In this document: in pieces, positions 52,116-64,000 of the stretch
Layout: the number at the start of each line of letters is the position of its first letter
How positions within the stretch are numbered: the stretch's first letter is position 1
NCBI GenBank assembly: GCA_030686115.1
Contig: CP131612.1
Span: forward strand, 1,116,001-1,180,000
DNA from: Psychrobacter cibarius
GTDB lineage: Bacteria > Pseudomonadota > Gammaproteobacteria > Pseudomonadales > Moraxellaceae
DNA length: 64,000 nt
Reading direction: 5' to 3'
Program-made: the position numbers and the translations under genes
The notes under the pieces: model-generated
The model's input: only the letters and a program-made list of their open reading frames with translations
Database searches by the model: none
What the model was told of the DNA's origin: nothing

Positions 52116-53510
52116 ATGCGCGCAAATTTTCATTTGAAAACTCTCACAGTAGCTGTTGCTGCTCTTTCTATTGCTAGCGTTGCTAGTGCTGCTGGTCTTG
52201 ATCGTTCAGGTCAAGATATCACTGCATTCTTACAAGATGGCACCTATGCCGAATCTGTTTATACTTATATCGATGCCGATGTGAGTGGTAAAGACTTGTC
52301 AGGCAATAAGCTCAATGATATCGCAGAGTCTTATGATTTTTTCCGTTATGGTGTAAAAGCAGATATTAACGACACGTTTAGCATCGGTATTTTATATGAT
52401 GAGCCTTTTGGTGCCGCCGCTGATTATAACGGTCAAAACGATTTCGTTACCGACAGTGATCGTGACGCTATCATTCAAGACTTTACAAAAAACCCTAATA
52501 TTACCGAAGCTTATGTCGATAACGTATTAATACCACAATTGCAAGGGGCGCTTGCTCCAGGTAATCCAGGTGGTTTAACTGCTGAGCAGTTACAAGCCGC
52601 TCAAGGTCAGCTTATTGGTCTTGAAGCCGCTAAAGGTCTAGCAGCAGTAGCCGGCGAAGCGACGCAAGTAGAAGTACGTACTGAGAGCATTACTGGTATT
52701 CTTGGTGCTAAATTTGGCGCTAACAAAGAGTTTCAAGCTTATGGTGGTCCAGTTGCTCAGCGCGTAAAGGCAGATGTAAAATTGCGCGGTGATGCATACA
52801 GTTCAGCCAAGGGTTATACCACTCACATCAGTAATGACCAAGACTATGGCTGGATCGCTGGTATGGCTTATAGCAAGCCTGAAATTGCACTTAAAGCTGC
52901 TTTGACGTATCGCTCTGAAATCAAGCACAATGCAAAAGCTTTTGAGACTTTTCCAATTGCTACGGCTGCAGGTGCTACCGCTGGCCTAGCGTTGCCGACT
53001 ACCAGACATTCTGATATTGAAATCAACACACCAGAATCAGTCAACTTTGATTTCCAGACGGGTATCAATCCTACCATGCTAGCTACTGCGAAAGTCCGTT
53101 GGGTGCCTTGGAGTGATTTTGCTATCGTACCGTCACTATACAATGATGTCAGTAAAGTATCGACAAAAGATGATGAAGGCTTGGCATTAGTTAGTTACGA
53201 TGAAGATCAATGGCAAGTTGAGCTAGGTCTCGCCAAGCGCATGACGCCAGCATTAGCAGTGACAGGTACTGTCGGTTGGGATAGTGGTGCTGGTAACCCT
53301 GTAACCTCGCTAGGCCCTATCGAAGGCTACTACAGTGCTGGTTTGGGTGCCAAGTACAATGTGACTGAAAACTGGGCAGTATCAGCTGGTGGTAAATACC
53401 TATGGTTCGGTGATGCTAAAGGCCAAATTCCGACTAAAGCCGTGGTTAGTAACTTTGAAGACAACGATGGTTTTGCACTTGGCGTGAAGCTTTCTTACCA
53501 AGCAAACTAA
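52116..53510 (+). CDS. FadL/OmpP1-family outer membrane protein, paralogue 1
   Basis: 464 residues with signal peptide (cleaved near ASAAG). The N-terminal GLDRSGQDITAFLQDGTYAE, a conserved FGAA (YDEPFGAA), and the ending GVKLSYQAN are the FadL-type pattern: a long beta-barrel whose N-terminal hatch (S-G-Q) plugs the pore. Substrates are hydrophobic molecules such as fatty acids or aromatics. An Ala/Gln-rich variable insert (~130-190) lies between conserved blocks. It is the first of three tandem paralogues; a GGAG-type site precedes ATG 52116. Confidence 0.88.
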   Translation: MRANFHLKTLTVAVAALSIASVASAAGLDRSGQDITAFLQDGTYAESVYTYIDADVSGKDLSGNKLNDIAESYDFFRYGVKADINDTFSIGILYDEPFGAAADYNGQNDFVTDSDRDAIIQDFTKNPNITEAYVDNVLIPQLQGALAPGNPGGLTAEQLQAAQGQLIGLEAAKGLAAVAGEATQVEVRTESITGILGAKFGANKEFQAYGGPVAQRVKADVKLRGDAYSSAKGYTTHISNDQDYGWIAGMAYSKPEIALKAALTYRSEIKHNAKAFETFPIATAAGATAGLALPTTRHSDIEINTPESVNFDFQTGINPTMLATAKVRWVPWSDFAIVPSLYNDVSKVSTKDDEGLALVSYDEDQWQVELGLAKRMTPALAVTGTVGWDSGAGNPVTSLGPIEGYYSAGLGAKYNVTENWAVSAGGKYLWFGDAKGQIPTKAVVSNFEDNDGFALGVKLSYQAN

Positions 53511-53555
53511 TTTGATGTGTAATTTGCTAAATTATAAATCCATAGTCTAAATAAT

Positions 53556-53586
53556 AAAAAGCGATCCTGATTGGGTCGCTTTTTTA
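53556..53586 (+). terminator. Intrinsic terminator after fadL paralogue 1
   Basis: The stem AAAAAGCGATC / GGTCGCTTTTTT (one wobble) followed by T's; the following gene therefore has its own promoter. Confidence 0.85.
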
Positions 53587-53787
53587 TGCCTAAAGTAAAG
53601 CAATTTCGACTTAGAGAGTTTTTTATTGAATATATTGGGCATTCTCAGAGGCTAAAATTAATGAACTATAGTTTAATTGTTGTATATAAGTGTTTATGCC
53701 TCGGCTCATAGTAAAACAATTGTTTAGATAATTGCTAACAAGATAAAACGATAACATTATAAAAGATAAAATAATTTCTTTTAAATA
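53587..53787. other. AT-rich spacer between fadL paralogues 1 and 2
   Basis: No gene or repeat seen between the terminator and the promoter at 53788. Confidence 0.4.
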
Positions 53788-53816
53788 TTGTTTTACGATT
53801 GAAAAGTCATTACTAT
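53788..53816 (+). promoter_or_regulatory. Candidate sigma-70 promoter of fadL paralogue 2
   Basis: TTGTTT, 17-base spacer, TACTAT, ending 100 bases before the start codon. The spacer ends GTCATTACTAT, nearly identical to the element before paralogue 1 (ATCATTACTAT). Confidence 0.55.
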
Positions 53817-53916
53817 CGAAAGCAGGACACCTTTTATGTAAAGCAATCTTGCGATTATTAATGTCGCTTATAGTTTATGTAAATGGTTAAACAACTGGGA
53901 TGTTTGGAGATAAACA

Positions 53917-55323
53917 ATGCGCGCTACTTTTCACTTAAAAACTCTTGCCGTAGCTATTGCTACTATTTCTGTAGCTACTATGACCAATGCTGCAGGTCTT
54001 GATCGTTCGGGTCAAGATGTCACAGCCTTCCTCCAAGATGGCACCTATGCTGAAGCTGTTTACACCTATATCGATGCTGACGTTAGTGGTTATGATAGTG
54101 CCAATAACGTTCCTAGCAACAATACCTATGTTAGAGGTGATAAGACTGGCGATATCGCTGAGTATTATGATTTTTTTCGTTATGGTGTAAAAACAGATAT
54201 CAATGAAACCTTTAGTGTTGGTATCTTATATGATGAGCCCTTTGGCGCAGCAGCGCAATATACTGGCGACAACAATTTTGTGTCGAAAGGCGACCTTGAT
54301 GCTTCTGTCGCTGCCATTACTAACAATCAAGCTCCCACTTATGCCGCAGCTTTGGCTGGAATAGGTGCGCTCACGCCAGGAGAAACGGCTGGAGTCTTGA
54401 CAGATGAACAGCAAGCGCAGTTAGATGGTTTGCGTGGAGCAGTAGGTATCGCAAATGCTGAAGCAGCTAATGCAGGGGAAGGTACTAATGTTGAAGTACG
54501 TAGTAACAGCCTGACAGCTATTCTTGGGGCAAAATTTGGTGCCAATAAAGAGTTTCAAGTATACGGTGGTCCAGTTGCTCAGCGTATTGAGTCTGAAGTA
54601 AAATTACGAGGTTTGGCTTATGGTCCTGCTACTGGCTATACCTCACGTAACAGCCCTGATATGGACTATGGTTATATAGCTGGTATTGCCTATAGCAAAC
54701 CTGAAATTGCCTTAAAAGCAGCGCTGACCTATCGCTCTGAAATCGACCACAACATGAAGATTGCTGAAAACTACCCGATTGCAGGTGCTTTAGCTGGTGA
54801 TCCAGCTGCAGCCAATCGTACCAGTAATATGGAAATTACTACTCCTAAATCCGTAAACTTTGATTTTCAAACGGGTATTAACCCTACAACTTTAGCAACT
54901 GCAAAAGTGCGCTGGGTACCTTGGGGTGACTTTAAGATTACGCCACCATTATATAATGAAGTTAGTAAAAGATCTTATGGACCTGATGGTTTGAACTTGG
55001 TTGAGTACGAAGAGGATCAATGGCAAGTTGAGCTTGGTCTTGCCAAACGTGTTGCACCAGCACTTGCAATTAGTGGTACCGTTGGTTGGGATAGTGGTGC
55101 TGGCAACCCTGTCACTTCGTTAGGTCCTATCGAAGGTTATTACAGCGCTGGTTTGGGTGCAAAGTATAACGTGACAGAAAACTGGGCAGTATCAGCGGGT
55201 GGCAAATACTTATGGTTCGGTGATGCCCAAGGTGTGTTGCCAAGTGGTAAAATTGTTGGTGATTTTCAGGATAATGATGGATACATATTTGGTGTGAAAT
55301 TGTCCTATCAAGATGTTAAATAG
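53917..55323 (+). CDS. FadL/OmpP1-family outer membrane protein, paralogue 2
   Basis: 468 residues with a signal peptide ending near TNAAG. It is highly similar to paralogue 1: SGQDVTAFLQDGTYAE, YDEPFGAAAQY, and an identical C-terminal stretch from VGWDSGAGNPVTSLGP to KYLWFGDA. The coding DNA in that stretch differs at many synonymous sites, so the identity reflects selection rather than recent copying. The variable insert is longer and different in sequence. It has its own promoter and terminator. Confidence 0.88.
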   Translation: MRATFHLKTLAVAIATISVATMTNAAGLDRSGQDVTAFLQDGTYAEAVYTYIDADVSGYDSANNVPSNNTYVRGDKTGDIAEYYDFFRYGVKTDINETFSVGILYDEPFGAAAQYTGDNNFVSKGDLDASVAAITNNQAPTYAAALAGIGALTPGETAGVLTDEQQAQLDGLRGAVGIANAEAANAGEGTNVEVRSNSLTAILGAKFGANKEFQVYGGPVAQRIESEVKLRGLAYGPATGYTSRNSPDMDYGYIAGIAYSKPEIALKAALTYRSEIDHNMKIAENYPIAGALAGDPAAANRTSNMEITTPKSVNFDFQTGINPTTLATAKVRWVPWGDFKITPPLYNEVSKRSYGPDGLNLVEYEEDQWQVELGLAKRVAPALAISGTVGWDSGAGNPVTSLGPIEGYYSAGLGAKYNVTENWAVSAGGKYLWFGDAQGVLPSGKIVGDFQDNDGYIFGVKLSYQDVK

Positions 55324-55387
55324 TGAGAAAATATCGAATATTAAGTGAACACTTGTTTTAATAAAATTGTATTCAGCACGATTGAAA

Positions 55388-55418
55388 AAGAGCAGCCCTT
55401 TGAGGCTGCTTTTTTTTA
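55388..55418 (+). terminator. Intrinsic terminator after fadL paralogue 2
   Basis: The stem AGCAGCC / GGCTGCT followed by T8. Confidence 0.9.
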
Positions 55419-55827
55419 ATTTTGTTTTTTATCAAAAAATACTACTGTTAATCAATGCTTTATATAGATTTCGAGAACTAAATGCAAGTTTTTTTAATGA
55501 CTGCTCATAGAAAATAATGGTTTACATAGTCCAAATCATTATGATTTTAATACTAAATTAGTTAACATAAATCTATCTTCACAAAAAATTAAAAAGGGTG
55601 TTGCTATAGTGTTGAACTTTAATTATGATACTGAAATCAGTTACGTTATCTTACATAGTAGAAATGTCTGATAACAACGAAAGTGTGATCGTGTAAGCGA
55701 TAGTTACATTCAATCGTTAAGTATAAAAGTCGTTTGGCAAAGGATTGCTCAGCATAAGCTTTAGTGACTAGTCGTTATATAGCAACTAAGCTACTTGCCA
55801 GTTATTTTATTCATGGAGGATATCTAA
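55419..55827. other. Spacer upstream of fadL paralogue 3 with candidate promoters
   Basis: About 410 AT-rich bases. One candidate promoter is TGGTTT-N16-TATGAT (55518-55545), with the AATCATTA context of the other two copies. A second is TTGCTA-N17-TATGAT (55601-55629). Either gives a leader of 200-280 bases, longer than for paralogues 1 and 2. No gene seen. Confidence 0.4.
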
Positions 55828-57216
55828 GTGTCTCATCAGCTCCCTATCTCTAAACTCACTCTCGCTCTTATTACCTTATCGGCTGCATCGTTGACGCAGG
55901 CGGCTGGTCTTGATCGTTCAGGTCAAGATATTAAGGGCTTTTTTAACTCTGGCACTTATGCCGAAATTGATTACGCTTATATTGATAGTGATGTTTCTGG
56001 TAACGATAATGCAGGTGCTATTCGTACCTCTCCCACTACAGAAATACGAAATGGCATAACGTCGGATGAAGCTTCATATGAGAAAGGTGCGCCTACTGGT
56101 AATATTACTGGTGATACCTATTCTTTTATGCGCTACGGTGTAAAAACGGATATCAATGACAACGTTAGTATCGGTGTATTTTATGATGAACCTTGGGGTG
56201 CAGAAGTAGAATATACTGGAAACAGCACTTTTGTATCTCAAGCAGGAAAAGATACCATAGCGGACTCATCTTCAGGTATTTCAGTGCCAAATGAAGTTAT
56301 CAATCCTTCAGTACTAGATCCTGACTACGATAAAAATACTAATGTTCGCGTCCATACCGAGACATGGACAGGCTTGGTTGGTTTTAAATCTAATGGCTTC
56401 CAAGTATATGGTGGTCCAGTATTGCAAAAAGCGGAAGCGGAAGTACACTTGCGTGGTCAGGCGTATGGACCATTGACTGGCTATGATGCAAATGTAAATA
56501 ACGATACTGCTTATGGTTGGGCAGCTGGTCTTGCTTATAGTAAACCTGAGATTGCATTAAAGGCCGCACTAACGTATCGCTCTGAAATCGAGCATGAGAC
56601 ACCAATAGGTGAAAGAGTGCCACTATTAGGGTCACCTCTAAAAGGCGTAGTACTAGATAAGCTTGGAATTGATCCAAATTCTGATCTTGGAAAATCGATT
56701 GGTGAGTATGCTACGACTGATGCTACTGTCACTACGCCAGAATCTGTTAATTTAAATATTGAAACTGGATTAAGTCAAAAGTATCAGTTATTAGGTACGT
56801 TGGATGTACGTTGGGTGCCGTGGAGTGATTTTTCTATTGTGCCGCCACTTTACAATGCCTACTCAAAAGCAGCTGTTCCAGAGGGATTACCTCTACTATC
56901 TTATGATAAAGACCAATGGAAAGTGGATGTTGGCTTAGCTAAACGTTTTAATGAGAAGCTAGCTGGCTCAGTGGTCGTTGGTTATGACTCTGGTGCAGGT
57001 GACCCTATAAGCTCACTTGGTACTATTGATGGATATTACAGTCTTGGTGGTGGTGTTAAGTACAATGTGACACCTGAATGGGCAGTTTCAGTGGGCGGAA
57101 AATATTTAAAATTTGGCGATGCTACAGGACAGCTACCTAACGGTAGTATCGTTAGCAAGTTTCAAGATAACGATGGCTACATCGCTGGTGTAAAACTCTC
57201 TTATCAGAGCCAGTAA
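55828..57216 (+). CDS. FadL/OmpP1-family outer membrane protein, paralogue 3
   Basis: 462 residues starting at a GTG (55828) with a strong ATGGAGGAT site six bases upstream. It has a signal peptide ending near TQAAG, the SGQDIKGFFNSGTYAE N-terminal pattern, and a conserved C-terminus. It is more diverged than paralogues 1 and 2 and lacks their Ala/Gln-rich insert. It shares the YDEPWGA site. The three genes may cover different hydrophobic substrates. Confidence 0.87.
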   Translation: MSHQLPISKLTLALITLSAASLTQAAGLDRSGQDIKGFFNSGTYAEIDYAYIDSDVSGNDNAGAIRTSPTTEIRNGITSDEASYEKGAPTGNITGDTYSFMRYGVKTDINDNVSIGVFYDEPWGAEVEYTGNSTFVSQAGKDTIADSSSGISVPNEVINPSVLDPDYDKNTNVRVHTETWTGLVGFKSNGFQVYGGPVLQKAEAEVHLRGQAYGPLTGYDANVNNDTAYGWAAGLAYSKPEIALKAALTYRSEIEHETPIGERVPLLGSPLKGVVLDKLGIDPNSDLGKSIGEYATTDATVTTPESVNLNIETGLSQKYQLLGTLDVRWVPWSDFSIVPPLYNAYSKAAVPEGLPLLSYDKDQWKVDVGLAKRFNEKLAGSVVVGYDSGAGDPISSLGTIDGYYSLGGGVKYNVTPEWAVSVGGKYLKFGDATGQLPNGSIVSKFQDNDGYIAGVKLSYQSQ

Positions 57217-57458: not shown

Positions 57459-59456
57459 ATGTCACCTAACCGTCATTCAATATCAGCTGTACCTACAGCC
57501 AAGAAACTAAAAACCCCCTTAAAAGCCAGTGTTGTCATACTAACTTCTGTCATCTTGTCCGCATGCGGAAGCAGTGGAAGCGATTCATATACCTTAAATG
57601 ATATTTTTGATGGTAGTAGCCCAGTAATCACACCGACACCAACACCAACACCAACACCAACACCAACGCCAACACCAACACCAACACCAACGCCAACGCC
57701 TGAAGACACAAGAACTGGCGTTCAGTCACTAAATATCAACGCAGGCTCACTCGGTGTATTTAACACAACTACCCGAGACTTCACCATTAATGAAGATGGC
57801 TCTACTGTCGATGCAAGAGCAGATATTGCTTCACAAAATCCAGCCACACCAGACCAACCTGGTTTACTACCGAAAGTTGCTATTAACACATCAGGCTCGA
57901 ATGACACCGAGCTTCAAAATGGTTTTAAAGCTCATAAAGACAGTACCGATATAGTTGTTGCTGCTCTTGGTCAAACACTACCGTTAGACTATACCTCAAC
58001 GTATAAAGACTTTGGCGATGACCTGCGCATCGGTCATATCGATGGTAAAGCAGAAGTCGTTGCTTTAGGTTCAACATTACCCGTAAATGGCGTTATCGTC
58101 ACAGGCAATGCGACCACAGCTGAAAACATGCCAATGGATGGTACGGTCAACTACACTGGAGACGCAACTTATCGTGAGCTTGGTCTAGACAAAGCTATTG
58201 AATATGGCACCTCAGCATTCACCGCAGACTTTGTTGCTAAGAACGTCAAAGGCGATCTCACTTTTAGTGATAAAAACATTGGTTTATCCGCTGATATCAC
58301 AGGCAATGAGTTCTCAGGCACAGCAGCAGCTAATAATGGTTACAAGACCGAAGGTGGTTTTTTCGGTGGTGATGCCCAATACCTAGGCGGTGTTTACGAA
58401 GGTAACGGTGCTCAAGGTACATATGGGGCAGAAAAAGATAAGGTTGTAACGCCGACTCCAACACCAACACCAACACCAACGCCAACACCAACGCCAACAG
58501 CGCCTATTAATCCAGATGCTAAAGTGGATACTGAGTTTACTGGCTTCCAAAGCAATACGTTAAGTAGTAAAAAAGGTAACTTTACAGCTGACGCCATTGG
58601 TTATGCAGAAATACGTGATGACAAGTCTGACTTTAAAGAAACGGTAGATGTAGACGGTTCTAAGGTGCCAGTAGATAATCATGCTGGAAATAATTTCACT
58701 GGTTATGATAAATTCATAGCTCGTGCTGACATGACCAAACCTGACTCTGTGAAAGAGCAAGTTTTAATCAATATAAGTGGAGACGCAGACACAGATTACG
58801 GTAATGGATTTAAGTTGCATACTGAGTCTACTAAAGTTCAAGGTCCTGTAGCATTAGACCTCAATTACTCATCTGTTTATAAGAACTTTGATTCGCAAAT
58901 GCAGATCGGTCATGTTTATGGTGATCCTAGAACTGACCTATTTGGTTTAGGTGACCTAGCTCGTGTTTCTACTGTTTACGTACAGGGTAACGGTACCAAT
59001 CTTGACGACATGCAGTACATGAAAGACTTAGCACAATACGATATCGATAATAATATCAATGACGGTATGGTGGCTTATGGCGGTGTTGCTACCTACATGG
59101 AAAATCTACATCTAAAAGATGGTGTTCGTGGTGGACCAGTAGTTGATGGTACTTCAGCATTTGACGTAGACTTTGTTGGTGGTAAAGTTGCAGGTACGCT
59201 GTCTTTTGCAGCAGGTGATTATAGTTACATGCCTACTGGTAACAAGATTGATATCAATGCAGATATTACAGGAAATACTTTCGCTGGTAATAAGAATGGT
59301 ATCGATACAGCAGGTGGTTTCTACGGTGAGGATGCTAACTTCTTAGGTGGCGTTTATCAAGAGGCTCTAACTCAAGGGGGTAAAGGTGCTCAGCCAGGTG
59401 AAGGTACTACTTTCCAAGGTACTTTTGGTGCTGAGAAGCAGCCTAATTCCAAATAA
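57459..59456 (+). CDS. Two-barrel Slam-type (TbpB-like) surface lipoprotein with Pro-Thr linkers
   Basis: 665 residues. A lipobox ILSAC (Cys36) follows an N-terminal leader. Two Thr-Pro repeat linkers (about residues 58-80 and 332-348) each precede a barrel domain. Barrel 1 (~85-328) and barrel 2 (~355-665) both have a 'GTSAF.VDF' strand, GDLTF/GTLSF, and end in TEGGFFGGDAQYLGGVY / TAGGFYGEDANFLGGVY then GTYGAEK / GTFGAEK. This is the TbpB-like beta-barrel pattern of Slam-dependent surface lipoproteins. A GGAGGAAG site precedes ATG 57459. The role is unknown; adhesion or ligand binding is inferred. Confidence 0.75.
   Translation: MSPNRHSISAVPTAKKLKTPLKASVVILTSVILSACGSSGSDSYTLNDIFDGSSPVITPTPTPTPTPTPTPTPTPTPTPTPEDTRTGVQSLNINAGSLGVFNTTTRDFTINEDGSTVDARADIASQNPATPDQPGLLPKVAINTSGSNDTELQNGFKAHKDSTDIVVAALGQTLPLDYTSTYKDFGDDLRIGHIDGKAEVVALGSTLPVNGVIVTGNATTAENMPMDGTVNYTGDATYRELGLDKAIEYGTSAFTADFVAKNVKGDLTFSDKNIGLSADITGNEFSGTAAANNGYKTEGGFFGGDAQYLGGVYEGNGAQGTYGAEKDKVVTPTPTPTPTPTPTPTPTAPINPDAKVDTEFTGFQSNTLSSKKGNFTADAIGYAEIRDDKSDFKETVDVDGSKVPVDNHAGNNFTGYDKFIARADMTKPDSVKEQVLINISGDADTDYGNGFKLHTESTKVQGPVALDLNYSSVYKNFDSQMQIGHVYGDPRTDLFGLGDLARVSTVYVQGNGTNLDDMQYMKDLAQYDIDNNINDGMVAYGGVATYMENLHLKDGVRGGPVVDGTSAFDVDFVGGKVAGTLSFAAGDYSYMPTGNKIDINADITGNTFAGNKNGIDTAGGFYGEDANFLGGVYQEALTQGGKGAQPGEGTTFQGTFGAEKQPNSK
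57631..57700. repeat. Hexanucleotide repeat encoding (Pro-Thr)n, first linker
   Basis: About 70 bases of ACACCA/ACGCCA units encode a Thr-Pro run. Unit length is a multiple of three, so changes in copy number would change linker length but keep frame. Confidence 0.85.
58449..58499. repeat. Hexanucleotide repeat encoding (Pro-Thr)n, second linker
   Basis: About 50 bases of the same unit as at 57631, between barrel 1 and barrel 2. Confidence 0.85.
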
Positions 59457-59522: not shown

Positions 59523-60132
59523 CTATATACCTGATATTGTGACTGTGAAGATGAGCAGAGGGTTCTTCTAAAATGATAAGAATTTTATTGATTAACTAAT
59601 GTTTGTCTATATAGTCAGATTTTAGTTATATTATATAAATAATAATAATAAAATTTAAGGATATTATTTTTGAAGTAGTTTTTTTAATAATCAATATAAC
59701 TTTTTAATGTATTTATTGGCTGATATTCTATTTTTTATCTATTTTAATAAAATAACGCTATCTGTCGCTGGTATCAAAATTTTTAAAATGAAATAAATTT
59801 TTAGTGGTTTTTATAGTTAAAATTATGATTTTATTGAATATTAAGGGTAGTTTTTTAGGATTTTACTTAATGATAACTCGTTTTTATTTTTTCTAAAATA
59901 TATTTGTATATCATATTAAAATTTAGTTGTTTATTGTTTATATAATACGATTTATATCATTTAAACTATTGATTAAATTTATTTAGTAACTAGAAGTTAC
60001 TGGCATTAATATTTGAATAATATTAATTGACTTTTTATATTACATTTGTTTATCTATTCAAGGCACTGAATATATGTTGTGTCTAAGTTAGTAAATAATG
60101 GAATATTACCAGTTCTTCATGGAGGAAGACGA
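59523..60132. other. AT-rich 610-base spacer upstream of the large lipoprotein gene
   Basis: Extremely AT-rich (long runs of A/T with almost no G/C for several hundred bases). No gene, tRNA or repeat seen. It ends in the same leader, GGAGGAAGACGAATGTCA, as the paralogue at 57459. It probably holds the promoter of the large gene and may bind nucleoid proteins; that is inference. Confidence 0.5.
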
Positions 60133-63100
60133 ATGTCATTTAATCATCATTCAATACCAGCGATATCTGCCGTAAAAAAACTACAGACACCGCTCAAAGC
60201 CAGCGTGGTTATTTTAACCACTGTCATTTTAGCTTCGTGTTCAACGAGCGGTAGTGATAGCACGGTTACGCCTAAGTCGTCACCTGTAATAGGATCAGAA
60301 AGTGGCGAAAATGTTGGTAGTGGAGGCAATGTCAGCAATGCTGACGCAGTAAAGGCTATCAAAGCTGCAGAAGCAAAAACTAAAGCTGCACAAGAAGCGC
60401 TCAAGGTTGCAGAAGCAAAAACCAAAGCTGCGCAAGATGCTCTTAAAGCAGCCCAAGAGAGTTTTGGAAAAGAGTCAGAGAAGGTAATGGTGGCATCTAA
60501 AACAGCGATAGATGCTGCAAAAGATGAAGCTGCAAAGGCCAAGCTCGCTGCAGAAGCCGCTCGAGTAGAGGCGGTAACAAAAATTGAAGCGGCTGCAAAA
60601 GCTTCTAAAACGGAAATAACAGCCGCTAAAAAATCCGCCGCCGATGCAGTTGCCAAAGTGAAAGCGGCTGAAGAAAAGGCTAAAGCCGCAGATAATCGTG
60701 CAACCGTAGCAGAGGCCAAGGCTAAAGAGATTGAGACATCTTTGAAAGCTGCAGAAGAAGCCAAAACTCAAGCAGAAAAACAAGCCACAGCTGCCAAAAT
60801 CCAAGCTGCGCTTGAGAAACAAAAAGCAGATAAAGCCCAAGGCGAAGCAGACAAAGCTAAAGCTGATTTATTGAAAGCAACAGATGATCTAGCAGCTGCA
60901 GAGAAAGCTTTAGCCGCCGCACTTGCCTCAGGTGGCAACACCGAAGCTTTACAAGCAGAAGTTGACCGTCGCCAAGTCGCTCTTGACGCCGCTAATGCCC
61001 AAGCCGCTGCAGCTCAGCAAGCTCAAGCCGCTGCCTCTGCTCAAGCTTCCGCCCAAGTAACTGCGGCTCAAGCTTCCGCCCAAGCGGCTAAAGATGCCTT
61101 AGCTGCCGCCACCATTAAGAATGCCCCTGAAGCAGAGAAATCTGGCGTGCAGTCGCTGAATATCAACGCTGGATCATTGGGTGTATTTAATACCACCACC
61201 CGCGACTTTGACATCAGCGCAGATGGTTCCACAGTAGATGCTAGAGCTGACATCGCTTCACAAGATCCCTCCACGCCAGATCAACCTGGTCTACTACCTA
61301 AAGTCGCTATCGTAACATCAGGGGCCAACGATACTGAAACTCAGAGCGGGTTTAAAACCTATGAAGGCGATACTGAAATTATCGTCGCAGCAATTGGTCA
61401 AACCTTACCACTTAACTACACCTCAACTTATAAAGACTTTGGCGATGACATGCGCATCGGTCATATCGATGGTGCCGCTGAAGTAGCATTGTTAGGCTCA
61501 ACCCTACCTGTGAATGGCGTTGTCGTTACTGGTAATGCTACTCAAGCTGCCAATATACCAACCGAAGGTAAAGTAGGTTATACAGGTGATGCTACTTATC
61601 GTGAACTTGGTTTAGGTAATGATATCGAATTTGGCAAATCAGTATTCACCGCAGACTTTGTGGCTAAAAACGTAAAAGGGGATCTCACATTTAATAAAGC
61701 CGGTAAAATTGGTTTAACCGCCAGCATTAATGGCAACCAATTCTCAGGGACTGCTGCTAACAATGCAGGCTATACAACCGAAGGTGGATTCTTTGGTGGT
61801 GATGCCCAGTACCTAGGCGGTGTTTACGCTGGCAATAATGCCCAAGGAACTTATGGCGCGACCAGCGATAAACAAACCGCTGCTGAGCAGTCTGCCAAAA
61901 ACGCTCAAGCAGCCGCAGCTGCTGCTAATGCTGCCATCGCTAATGCTCAGGCACAGGCAAATGCTGCTAAAGCTGCTGCTGATAAAGCTCAAGCAGACGC
62001 TGTCAAAGCACAAGAAGCCTTACAAAGAGCAGAAGACGCTCTAGCCAATGCTGGTAATGGTGAAAAGCAATTAGCTGCTGCCCTAGAACGTGCATCCGCA
62101 GCAGAAATGGCTGAAGCCGCTGCATTACAAGCCTTGTCGACGGCAGAAGCTGCAAGAAAAGCTGCGGAGACTGCAAAAGACGCCGCATTACAAGCTGCAC
62201 AAGCAGCACAAAATGCTGCAGACAAAGCGATTGGTGAGGCCAAAGTGGAAGCGGATAAAAAAGTCGCAGAAGCCAATCAGCAAGCCGCAGATGCGACAGC
62301 ACAAGCTGCTGCTGCTCAAACGCGCGCTGATGAAGCTTTACAAGCGAAAGCAGATGCAGAAGCTAGAGCAAAAGCTGCAGAAGAGGCTCTTGAAGCATCG
62401 CAGCAGTTACCACCAGCACCAACCAATCCACAGTCTCCAGTGAATGCAACAATAAGTGGTTTCCAAAATACGATCTCAGGTAGTGACAATAGCGCTATCA
62501 ATACCAATACTTCTGCTAACTACGATACGCTTAAAGTTAATTTATTAGAAACTGGGTCTGGACGTTTTGATAAAAATACTACTACTAACTTTAAGTTACG
62601 AGATGCAGGTGATGAGGACTACGAAGCAGGATTTAAAAAGAGTGCTTTATATTCATTGCCAGCAGGGTATTTGAACAGACGTTTCAAATATACGTCTTTT
62701 TATAAAAACTACAATGATCAGATGCAAATCGGTCATTTATACGGTGATCTCAAAACGACAAACAATGGAATTCGATTAGACACCTTATCTAATGTCTACG
62801 TACAAGGTAACAGTACAAGCACTGACGATATGCAGTACATGAAAGGCTTGTCACAATACAATATTGATAATGGTATTAATGATGGCAAAGTAGCTTATAA
62901 AGGTGATGCCACTTATATTGGTAATAGTGAGCAAGAAATCATTGGTGTTAATCCGATTATAGGTACCTCTGAGTTTGATGTGGACTTTGTCGACAGTCAA
63001 ATAGATGGTACGTTATCATTTGAAGGTTCTAATGTCAGTGAGAAGAAAATCAAAGCCGAGATTATTGGAAATACCTTTGCTGGTAATTGGAATGGGGTTG

Positions 63101-64000
63101 ATACTAAAGGGGGTTTCTTTGGTGAAGATGCAGGTCTATTAGGTGGTGTTTATCAAGTTTCTGGTGGTAAAGGCACTTATGGCGCTAGCAAAGTAGATCC
63201 AAGCGCTGCTCCTGCTCCAGTAGAGTCTACAATGACAGGCTTCCAATCTACCGCCTTAAGTAGCAAAAATAAAACATTACCATTGGGTCAAGGTCAACTG
63301 GTAGACGCGATTGGTTATTTGGAAATCAGAGATGATAAATCGGCATGGACAGAAACGAACGTTAAGGATGGTTCTAATGTCCCAATAGACAATCGCAAAG
63401 GCAACAATTTCAATAGCTTTAGTAAAGGCAAAGTACTTGCTGATATGGTTAAGCCAGACACGGTCCTTAAACCAATAGAGGTGTCTTTGACCAATGCAAC
63501 TGGCGCAGTCACAGTTGATGCAGGGAGAGGTAACCTTAATCCAAGTTATCAATACAGCGCTGTTTATGAGAACTTTGACAATCAAATGCAGATTGGTCAT
63601 GTATATGGCAATCTTAACTCATCGTTTGCAGGCGATGTCTCACGTGCAGCCAATGTATATGTACAAGGCTACTTAACCTCGCAAGCAGGTATGGACAGTC
63701 TGAAAGGTGTTAATGATGGTAAGGCTCAATATACAGGCAGTGCGACTTATATTGAAAATATCCATTTAGCGGATAATGCTTCGACAGCCCCAGTTAATGG
63801 TACTTCTGCTTTCAACGTTGATTTTGTCAATGGCTCAGTCGATGGCACATTATCATTTACTGGTACGGACTATAAATATATGCCTGCTGGCAATCAGATC
63901 AAAATTGATGCAGATATTGCGGGCAATACTTTTGTGGGTAATAAAAATGGCATCGATACCGCAGGTGGTTTCTATGGTGAAGGTGCGAAGTTCTTAGGCG
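60133..64000 (+). CDS. Very large Slam-type lipoprotein with alternating helical stalks and TbpB-like barrels (3' end outside window)
   Basis: The frame from ATG 60133 has no stop to the window end (1289 codons). Lipobox ILASC, Cys36. Order of parts: Ser/Gly spacer (~37-69); Ala/Lys/Glu/Gln-rich helical stalk 1 (~70-336, KAAEAKTKAAQEALKVAEAK); barrel 1 (~337-576, close to barrel 1 of the previous gene); stalk 2 (~577-756); Pro-rich hinge (QQLPPAPTNPQSPV); barrel 2 (~770-1020); barrel 3 (~1033 on, just reaching GGFYGEGAKFLG at the edge). The end is predicted 30-60 residues beyond. It has the GGAGGAAG site and N-terminus of its neighbour. Role inferred as a long surface-exposed lipoprotein. Confidence 0.82.
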   Translation, partial: MSFNHHSIPAISAVKKLQTPLKASVVILTTVILASCSTSGSDSTVTPKSSPVIGSESGENVGSGGNVSNADAVKAIKAAEAKTKAAQEALKVAEAKTKAAQDALKAAQESFGKESEKVMVASKTAIDAAKDEAAKAKLAAEAARVEAVTKIEAAAKASKTEITAAKKSAADAVAKVKAAEEKAKAADNRATVAEAKAKEIETSLKAAEEAKTQAEKQATAAKIQAALEKQKADKAQGEADKAKADLLKATDDLAAAEKALAAALASGGNTEALQAEVDRRQVALDAANAQAAAAQQAQAAASAQASAQVTAAQASAQAAKDALAAATIKNAPEAEKSGVQSLNINAGSLGVFNTTTRDFDISADGSTVDARADIASQDPSTPDQPGLLPKVAIVTSGANDTETQSGFKTYEGDTEIIVAAIGQTLPLNYTSTYKDFGDDMRIGHIDGAAEVALLGSTLPVNGVVVTGNATQAANIPTEGKVGYTGDATYRELGLGNDIEFGKSVFTADFVAKNVKGDLTFNKAGKIGLTASINGNQFSGTAANNAGYTTEGGFFGGDAQYLGGVYAGNNAQGTYGATSDKQTAAEQSAKNAQAAAAAANAAIANAQAQANAAKAAADKAQADAVKAQEALQRAEDALANAGNGEKQLAAALERASAAEMAEAAALQALSTAEAARKAAETAKDAALQAAQAAQNAADKAIGEAKVEADKKVAEANQQAADATAQAAAAQTRADEALQAKADAEARAKAAEEALEASQQLPPAPTNPQSPVNATISGFQNTISGSDNSAINTNTSANYDTLKVNLLETGSGRFDKNTTTNFKLRDAGDEDYEAGFKKSALYSLPAGYLNRRFKYTSFYKNYNDQMQIGHLYGDLKTTNNGIRLDTLSNVYVQGNSTSTDDMQYMKGLSQYNIDNGINDGKVAYKGDATYIGNSEQEIIGVNPIIGTSEFDVDFVDSQIDGTLSFEGSNVSEKKIKAEIIGNTFAGNWNGVDTKGGFFGEDAGLLGGVYQVSGGKGTYGASKVDPSAAPAPVESTMTGFQSTALSSKNKTLPLGQGQLVDAIGYLEIRDDKSAWTETNVKDGSNVPIDNRKGNNFNSFSKGKVLADMVKPDTVLKPIEVSLTNATGAVTVDAGRGNLNPSYQYSAVYENFDNQMQIGHVYGNLNSSFAGDVSRAANVYVQGYLTSQAGMDSLKGVNDGKAQYTGSATYIENIHLADNASTAPVNGTSAFNVDFVNGSVDGTLSFTGTDYKYMPAGNQIKIDADIAGNTFVGNKNGIDTAGGFYGEGAKFLG

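What the first reader, a model, noticed from the sequence alone, without database searches (positions are those of the whole stretch)
60133..64000. Giant lipoprotein of alternating helical stalks and TbpB-like barrels
The sequence directly shows an uninterrupted frame of at least 1289 codons, a lipobox, two long Ala-rich heptad-like regions (about 265 and 180 residues) and three barrel modules. Slam-substrate lipoproteins are usually one or two domains with short anchors. A multi-barrel protein on stalks long enough to project well beyond the cell surface is an unusual architecture that may be undescribed.
Basis: partly seen in the sequence, partly recalled or inferred. Interest (0 to 1): 0.78.

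Follow-up and report, generated by a model that had tools for sequence, protein, structure and literature searches.

The report
Giant stalk-and-barrel surface lipoprotein
A Psychrobacter gene next to its own outer-membrane exporter encodes a very long lipid-anchored, probably surface-exposed protein in which barrel domains alternate with long alanine-rich helical rods; the general class is known, but this rod-spaced, growing form appears undescribed.

Summary
The frame is intact and ends 31 codons past the window: 1,320 aa with a lipobox, two Ala-rich stalks (about 258 and 182 residues) and three TbpB-type lobes. The next gene encodes a Slam exporter, the genome's only one over cut-off. All three barrels match solved TbpB by profile. 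Raw composition shows no significant heptads, but conservation in the long helices repeats every 3.56 residues (0 of 2,000 shuffles), as in a coiled coil. At least 14 of 105 Psychrobacter genomes carry such proteins (19 frames of 1,200 aa or more, 3-5 lobes, up to 2,666 aa). Stalk+lobe units duplicated in tandem; in the nine genes of the main plan with repeated A lobes, all 12 spacers between them are 311-315 residues, though a second paralogue type has 230-243. Prior art: "Psychrobacter surface proteins" with 2-3 handle-barrel pairs and Pro-Thr-Asp repeats, and single-barrel helical Pls-like cargo (PMC12282271). So: a new variant of a known kind. Ligand, surface exposure and fold are untested; the structure server stayed full.

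The parts
60133..60240 (+). Signal peptide and lipobox LASC; lipidated Cys is residue 36 (60238-60240)
   Evidence: signal peptide and lipobox conserved in homologues; ribosome-binding site TGGAGGA at 60120-60126
60349..61122 (+). Stalk 1: about 258 residues, 36.8% Ala, no Pro, with a conserved Gly-Gly hinge (SGGNTEALQAEVDRR) near its end
   Evidence: conservation period 3.56 in the long helix, 0 of 2,000 shuffles; the part after the hinge is not significant, 462 of 2,000
61141..61860 (+). Lobe A (handle plus barrel; barrel about 61405-61860)
   Evidence: PF01298 and NF041636; A-lobe profile to TbpB 3hol, E 5.9e-10; 77% identical to the first lobe of the upstream paralogue
61861..62406 (+). 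Stalk 2: about 182 residues, 43.4% Ala, no Pro, with an AGNG hinge
   Evidence: conservation period 3.42 overall and 3.57 after the hinge, 0 of 2,000 shuffles each
62455..63186 (+). Lobe B (handle plus barrel; barrel about 62677-63186)
   Evidence: B-lobe profile to TbpB 3pqs, E 1.2e-11; hhalign to lobe C probability 100%
63235..64000 (+). Lobe C (barrel from about 63538), the C-terminal lobe; continues 31 codons past the window and ends FQGTFGAAKQ
   Evidence: C-lobe profile to TbpB 4o3y, E 2.3e-9. The Slam gene follows outside the window (L003:12236-13786, window numbering 64235-65785)
57459..59456 (+). Paralogous 665-aa lipoprotein with two lobes joined by Pro-Thr repeats instead of helical stalks
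59986..60000 (+). Conserved dyad GTAAC-N5-GTTAC upstream of the gene (putative operator); promoter-like TTGACT at 60027-60032 and a weak TATCTA at 60051-60056
   Evidence: this promoter-like pair was read from the alignment and is not among the sites listed by the promoter scan

Best explanation
A lipid-anchored cell-surface protein exported by the Slam (type 11 secretion) gene just downstream. SHOWN BY SEQUENCE: lipoprotein signal, three TbpB-type handle-barrel lobes, two Ala-rich helical stalks with heptad-type conservation, adjacent Slam. INFERRED: after Sec export and lipidation the unfolded chain is recognised by Slam through its C-terminal barrel and threaded out, lobe C first (model proposed for TbpB in PMC9090332), then folds outside. 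The Ala-core coiled-coil stalks act as stiff spacers that hold the binding lobes at set distances from the membrane and from each other. The protein is most likely a multivalent binding or adhesion molecule; related species tune reach and valency by duplicating stalk+lobe units. The ligand is not known.
For: Slam family hits PF04575 (1e-59) and PF24575 (4e-27) for the next gene; only Slam over cut-off in the genome. Of 105 Psychrobacter genomes, 29 of the 30 with PF01298 barrels also have a Slam match over cut-off, against 3 of the 75 without (Fisher p 2e-21; relatedness not corrected). NF041636 104 bits > 80. Solved-structure profile hits for all three lobes. Stalk conservation periodicity. 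Spacer role: in the nine genes of the stalk-A(n)-stalk-B-C plan with n of 2 or 3, all 12 spacers between A lobes are 311-315 residues at 43-100% pair identity, while the first spacer of the same genes varies from 170 to 532. Related lobes sit on helical stalks in one protein and on Pro-Thr linkers in another: own lobe A and its neighbour's first lobe are 77% identical, and G085_1243 lobe 2 is sister to G024_672 lobe 1. Units repeated in tandem at 67-97% DNA identity in five relatives. Precedent: single-barrel helical-repeat Pls needs its T11SS protein for surface display (PMC12282271 section 16).
Against: No surface-exposure or binding data. The 3D model could not be run, so extended rod versus folded-back hairpins is open. 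The constant spacer is not general: five second-type paralogues have A-type to A-type spacers of 230-243 residues, and constancy could reflect shared descent and gene conversion. The short helices do not reach significance in the conservation test. One relative (L048) has no Slam hit in its fetched region although its genome has Slam elsewhere. One genome with barrels (G039) has no Slam over cut-off. Four shorter lipoproteins end in an A-type lobe, so a C-type lobe is not strictly required. Nothing in the data names a ligand.
Confidence: 0.63

Rival explanations
1. A nutrient-capture lipoprotein like TbpB or hemophilin: the lobes bind an iron or haem carrier and pass it to a TonB-dependent receptor; stalks merely extend reach.
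For: Lobes are closest among solved structures to TbpB, with weaker hits to hemophilin for lobes B and C.
Against: 15 scanned neighbouring frames include no TonB-dependent receptor (not every frame of the window was scanned, nor the rest of the genome). The best Fur-box match upstream is no better than in shuffles (11 of 19 bases, shuffled mean 12.0, consensus recalled). Repeated identical A lobes are not a feature of TbpB as described in PMC5449769 (two lobes).
Confidence: 0.2
2. A surface coat or decoy: a long, variable-length filament that shields the cell from phage, predators or grazers, with lobes serving mainly as export signals.
For: Length varies strongly between species and grows by near-identical repeats; stalk-only repeats occur too (five tandem 152-aa copies at 99.8-100% DNA identity).
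Against: A lobes keep many invariant residues across the nine compared sequences; Pro-Thr paralogues keep the same lobes without helical stalks.
Confidence: 0.12
3. A periplasm-spanning rod (TolA-like, recalled): the Ala-rich helices cross the periplasm and the protein faces inward.
For: Composition resembles the recalled TolA middle domain; no experiment places the protein outside.
Against: Adjacent Slam and Slam-type barrels on both sides of stalk 2.
Confidence: 0.04
4. An assembly or reading-frame artefact.
For: Low-complexity repeats; a near-identical draft genome (JCM 18903, L011/L061) carries the gene in two frames.
Against: Own genome is two contigs with no stop in 1,320 codons; the architecture recurs in single-contig genomes G006, G055 and G089.
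Confidence: 0.01

Closest known systems
Psychrobacter surface proteins (T11SS cargo architecture, PMC12282271)
   Same: Same genus label, mostly lipoproteins, two to three handle-barrel (TbpBBD) pairs, predicted Slam/T11SS cargo
   Different: Published form has about 12 N-terminal Pro-Thr-Asp repeats and long disordered loops; here Ala-rich helical stalks lie before and between lobes, and relatives have 4-5 lobes. The upstream 665-aa paralogue, with Pro-Thr runs, is close to the published form
Pls-like T11SS cargo (H. parahaemolyticus Pls with TepS, PMC12282271)
   Same: Long alpha-helical repeat before the handle and barrel; surface display shown to need its T11SS protein
   Different: One C-terminal barrel and an EEARKA repeat, a string absent from the own protein; no alternation of stalks and lobes
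TbpB / LbpB
   Same: Handle-barrel lobes; profile matches to solved TbpB for all three barrels
   Different: Two lobes, no long helical stalks (recalled); bind transferrin or lactoferrin with a TonB-dependent partner (recalled), a kind of gene not found among the 15 neighbours scanned

Membership tests
Slam (T11SS)-dependent surface lipoproteins | Lipoprotein signal with lipobox | tested here: met
   LASC, Cys at residue 36, read by motif; no signal-peptide predictor was available
Slam (T11SS)-dependent surface lipoproteins | TbpB-type eight-stranded barrel at the C-terminus | tested here: met
   PF01298 best stretch 1195-1319 of 1,320; NF041636 over cut-off; profile match to TbpB structures. 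The strand count itself was not tested
Slam (T11SS)-dependent surface lipoproteins | Slam gene present, often adjacent | tested here: met
   L003:12236-13786, PF04575 and PF24575
Slam (T11SS)-dependent surface lipoproteins | One or two barrel copies (2017 description, PMC5449769) | tested here: not met
   Three barrels. A later survey reports two to three in Psychrobacter (PMC12282271), so this is the count in one description and I do not treat it as a defining bar
Slam (T11SS)-dependent surface lipoproteins | Surface display depends on Slam | not testable with these tools
   Needs a wet assay
Psychrobacter surface protein architecture (PMC12282271) | N-terminal Pro-Thr-Asp repeats, disordered linkers | tested here: not met
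   No PT run found in the giant; Ala-rich Pro-free stalks instead. The 665-aa neighbour has PT runs
Psychrobacter surface protein architecture (PMC12282271) | Two to three handle-barrel pairs | tested here: met
   Three lobes
Pls-like T11SS cargo | EEARKA-type helical repeat followed by one handle-barrel | tested here: not met
   Three lobes and two stalks; string EEARKA absent
TbpB | Two lobes working with a TonB-dependent receptor (TbpA) | tested here: not met
   Three lobes. The receptor part is only partly tested: none among 15 neighbouring frames scanned; the genome was not searched for one
TbpB | Binds transferrin | not testable with these tools
   No binding data

The most novel reading that the evidence does not exclude
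A single-chain, lipid-anchored surface fibre exported by one outer-membrane protein, in which Ala-core coiled-coil rods of near-fixed length (about 314 residues in the main plan) act as molecular rulers between repeated binding lobes, and reach and valency evolve by tandem duplication of rod+lobe units, up to five lobes and, if fully extended, on the order of 100-200 nm.
Probability: 0.37. Interest if true: 0.68.

Novelty: new variant of a known kind. Interest (0 to 1): 0.52.

Why it matters
It shows predicted Slam cargo going well beyond the compact one- or two-lobe proteins on which the export model rests: chains from frames of up to 2,666 aa, with several barrels and hundreds of residues of helix, would have to pass one predicted 14-stranded pore (strand number as given in a passage of PMC5449769). 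That makes a sharp test of whether Slam threads unfolded chains C-terminus first without a length limit. The near-constant spacer between repeated lobes also offers a natural series for asking how bacteria set the distance between surface binding sites.

Tried and rejected
Structure prediction (alignment A1 covering residues 36-1022; A2 for the paralogue) was asked for 21 times (20 for A1, once for A2) and each time answered 'machine busy, 100 jobs waiting'. No model exists, so no fold search was made.

Raw hydrophobicity spectra of the stalks: not significant. Conservation tests that failed: the part of stalk 1 after its hinge (462 of 2,000), and helix 1 (124 of 2,000) and helix 3 (621 of 2,000) of the A-A spacers. 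mis-set the segment limits of helices 2 and 3; its figures are discarded and replaced. For one search three of twelve spacers were left out (an identical copy in G055, a partly rearranged copy in G044, the divergent G006) and gapped columns were dropped. The 12 A-A spacers aligned were picked by a rule of more than 300 residues; the claim of constancy therefore rests, where all A-A spacers of the nine main-plan genes with repeated A lobes are listed (12 of 12 at 311-315) and five second-type paralogues have 230-243. Lobe limits there come from a motif rule and may be a few residues off.

Fur box: no better than shuffles; iron uptake is weakened, not excluded. SMC, NlpC/P60 and klebicin hits were taken as coiled-coil or low-complexity matches, not tested further. 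The lobe tree uses 117 of 119 barrels; two cut ones were dropped by a length rule; its linker label is a crude composition call. Tandem A copies are not sisters in G017_1896, G037_1770 and G035_2666. Of the Slam-positive genomes without barrels, G013 holds only a short match with stop codons.
Full report
THE OBSERVATION. The window lies in a 3.43-Mb, two-contig genome. Six of six distinct loci found by similarity to the protein in named genomes are Psychrobacter, the nearest with 99% identity in its best segment, so the host is taken as Psychrobacter. The frame that starts with ATG at 60133 stops 31 codons past the window end, giving 1,320 residues. A ribosome-binding site precedes the ATG and the signal peptide with lipobox is conserved in homologues. 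Pfam and NCBIfam each find three TbpB-type stretches, and the whole protein passes the NF041636 'Slam-dependent surface lipoprotein' cut-off, 104 against 80 bits. Stalks of about 258 and 182 residues are 37% and 43% Ala and contain no Pro.

SURROUNDINGS. The next gene downstream encodes Slam: PF04575 over its full length and the Slam TPR domain PF24575. It is the only Slam over the cut-off in the genome, and only two open frames in the genome match PF01298: the giant and the 665-aa paralogue just upstream, whose two lobes are joined by Pro-Thr runs. Fifteen further neighbouring frames that I scanned hold transporters, metabolic enzymes, a LysR regulator, outer-membrane-protein-like genes and others, with no TonB-dependent receptor; other frames of the window were not scanned.

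THE FAMILY. Of 105 Psychrobacter genomes 30 have PF01298 barrels and 32 have a Slam match over cut-off. Comparing the two lists, 29 of the 30 barrel-bearing genomes have Slam (G039 does not), and 3 of the other 75 do (G013, a short broken match, G030 and G087); Fisher p 2e-21, without correction for relatedness. I fetched 20 regions from 18 of those genomes, chosen for large or clustered frames, and mapped 119 barrels in them and in the own region. Nineteen stop-to-stop frames of 1,200 aa or more, from 14 genomes counting the own one, have 3 lobes (9), 4 lobes (7) or 5 lobes (3), each with Ala-rich helix-prone stretches; the longest is 2,666. The match list was cut, so 14 is a lower bound. All 19 end in a lobe of the B/C clade. 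A Slam similar to the own one lies in 15 of the 20 regions; four of the other five end at a contig edge within 1 kb of the last lobe gene, and one (L048) does not. In a sample of 398 genomes of the phylum, with at most ten candidates scored in some genomes, the longest frames with a listed barrel outside Psychrobacter were 1,164 aa (a weak match) and 886 aa. In 348 Moraxellaceae genomes the listed frames outside Psychrobacter reach 1,127 aa, and that list was cut.

MODULES. The main plan is lipobox, then [stalk, lobe A] once to three times, stalk, lobe B, short linker, lobe C; the own protein has one A lobe. A second paralogue type and L048 depart from it. Eight genes were compared with themselves: five relatives (G044, G055_2417, G035, G089, G007) show long tandem repeats of stalk+lobe at 67-97% DNA identity, L048 shows a 152-residue stalk repeat at 99.8-100% plus a weaker lobe repeat, and the two own genes show none. 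In the lobe tree A-type (59 rows) and B/C-type (58 rows) barrels separate (100/99). Tandem A copies are identical or each other's nearest in ten genes, six of them among the nine main-plan genes with repeated A lobes; G017_1896, G037_1770 and G035_2666 are the exceptions. The own lobe B groups with G024 (99/96) and then G007, G035 and G085 (93/81), the own lobe C with G089, G066 and G017 (100/81), whose B lobes form another clade (100/100), so lobes have probably been reshuffled. In the nine main-plan genes with repeated A lobes all 12 spacers between A lobes are 311-315 residues, with pair identities of 43-100%, whereas their first spacers range from 170 to 532 residues. In five second-type paralogues the spacer between two A-type lobes is 230-243.

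WHAT THE STALKS ARE. Conservation tells more: along the long helix of stalk 1 it repeats every 3.56 residues, along stalk 2 after its hinge every 3.57 (0 of 2,000 shuffles each), and along helix 2 of nine A-A spacers every 3.56 (0 of 2,000), where 37 of 46 gaps between invariant Ala are 3, 4 or 7 (no null was made for this count). The short helices do not reach significance for conservation. This fits an Ala-core coiled coil interrupted by conserved Gly hinges. Whether the pieces form one rod or fold back as hairpins is open. If every residue of the long spacers were in one straight helix (0.15 nm per residue, recalled) the own protein would have 75 nm of spacer and the largest relative 204 nm; these are upper bounds.

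LOBES. Profiles of lobes A, B and C match solved TbpB chains with E 5.9e-10, 1.2e-11 and 2.3e-9, mostly over the barrel, and hhalign relates A to C and B to C at 99.8% and 100%.

HOW IT LIKELY WORKS. PMC9090332 (abstract and passages) reports that TbpB crosses the membrane unfolded through Slam1 with help of Skp, and proposes recognition of a motif at the C-terminus. PMC12282271 (sections 15 and 16) reports that a helical-repeat, single-barrel cargo needs its T11SS protein to reach the surface. By analogy the giant is exported by its neighbour, lobe C first. Related lobes carried on helical stalks in one protein and on Pro-Thr linkers in another (own lobe A and its neighbour's first lobe, 77% identical; G085_1243 lobe 2 and G024_672 lobe 1, support 99/83) argue that the stalks are spacers. 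Multivalent binding or adhesion is the most economical function but is inference.

NOVELTY. PMC5449769 (passages) says all Slam-dependent cargo known to it has one or two barrels. PMC12282271 describes Psychrobacter surface proteins with two to three handle-barrel pairs and Pro-Thr-Asp repeats. Neither, in what I read, describes helical stalks between lobes, four or five lobes, or unit duplication; the searches showed no other description in their listings, and supplements were not readable. I file it as a new variant of a known kind.

LIMITS. No structural model, no experiment, one genome per species, and a co-occurrence test not corrected for relatedness.

Noticed in passing
window 59986-60000: Dyad GTAAC-N5-GTTAC is the only exact occurrence in the own genome (control pattern 11). 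It lies in a short conserved block upstream of the giants' starts and also just upstream of large lobe genes in G007, G017, G035, G050, G061 and G066 (list cut); G089 and G024 have an altered right arm. Against a dedicated operator: 63 of 105 genomes hold the pattern, many without these genes, usually 1-3 times.
   Followed up: partly
L048:1725-7592 (genome G055): A 1,955-aa relative with five near-identical 152-residue stalk repeats followed by four lobes, without a Slam hit in the fetched region.
   Followed up: partly
L011 / L061 (Psychrobacter sp. JCM 18903 draft): In this near-identical draft both the giant and the Slam gene are spread over two frames; draft sequencing error or real decay cannot be told apart here. 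Described only, not mended.
   Followed up: no
window 52116-57216: Three consecutive outer-membrane-protein-like genes (one matches Toluene_X/FadL over cut-off, the other two only below cut-off) lie upstream of the lipoprotein pair.
   Followed up: no
window 60147-60764 (minus strand): A 205-codon antisense frame over the start of the gene and stalk 1, most likely a shadow of the Ala-rich composition.
   Followed up: no
L047 (genome G055): The last barrel of the 745-aa frame is identical to the last barrel of the 2,417-aa frame in the same genome, suggesting gene conversion of C lobes.
   Followed up: no
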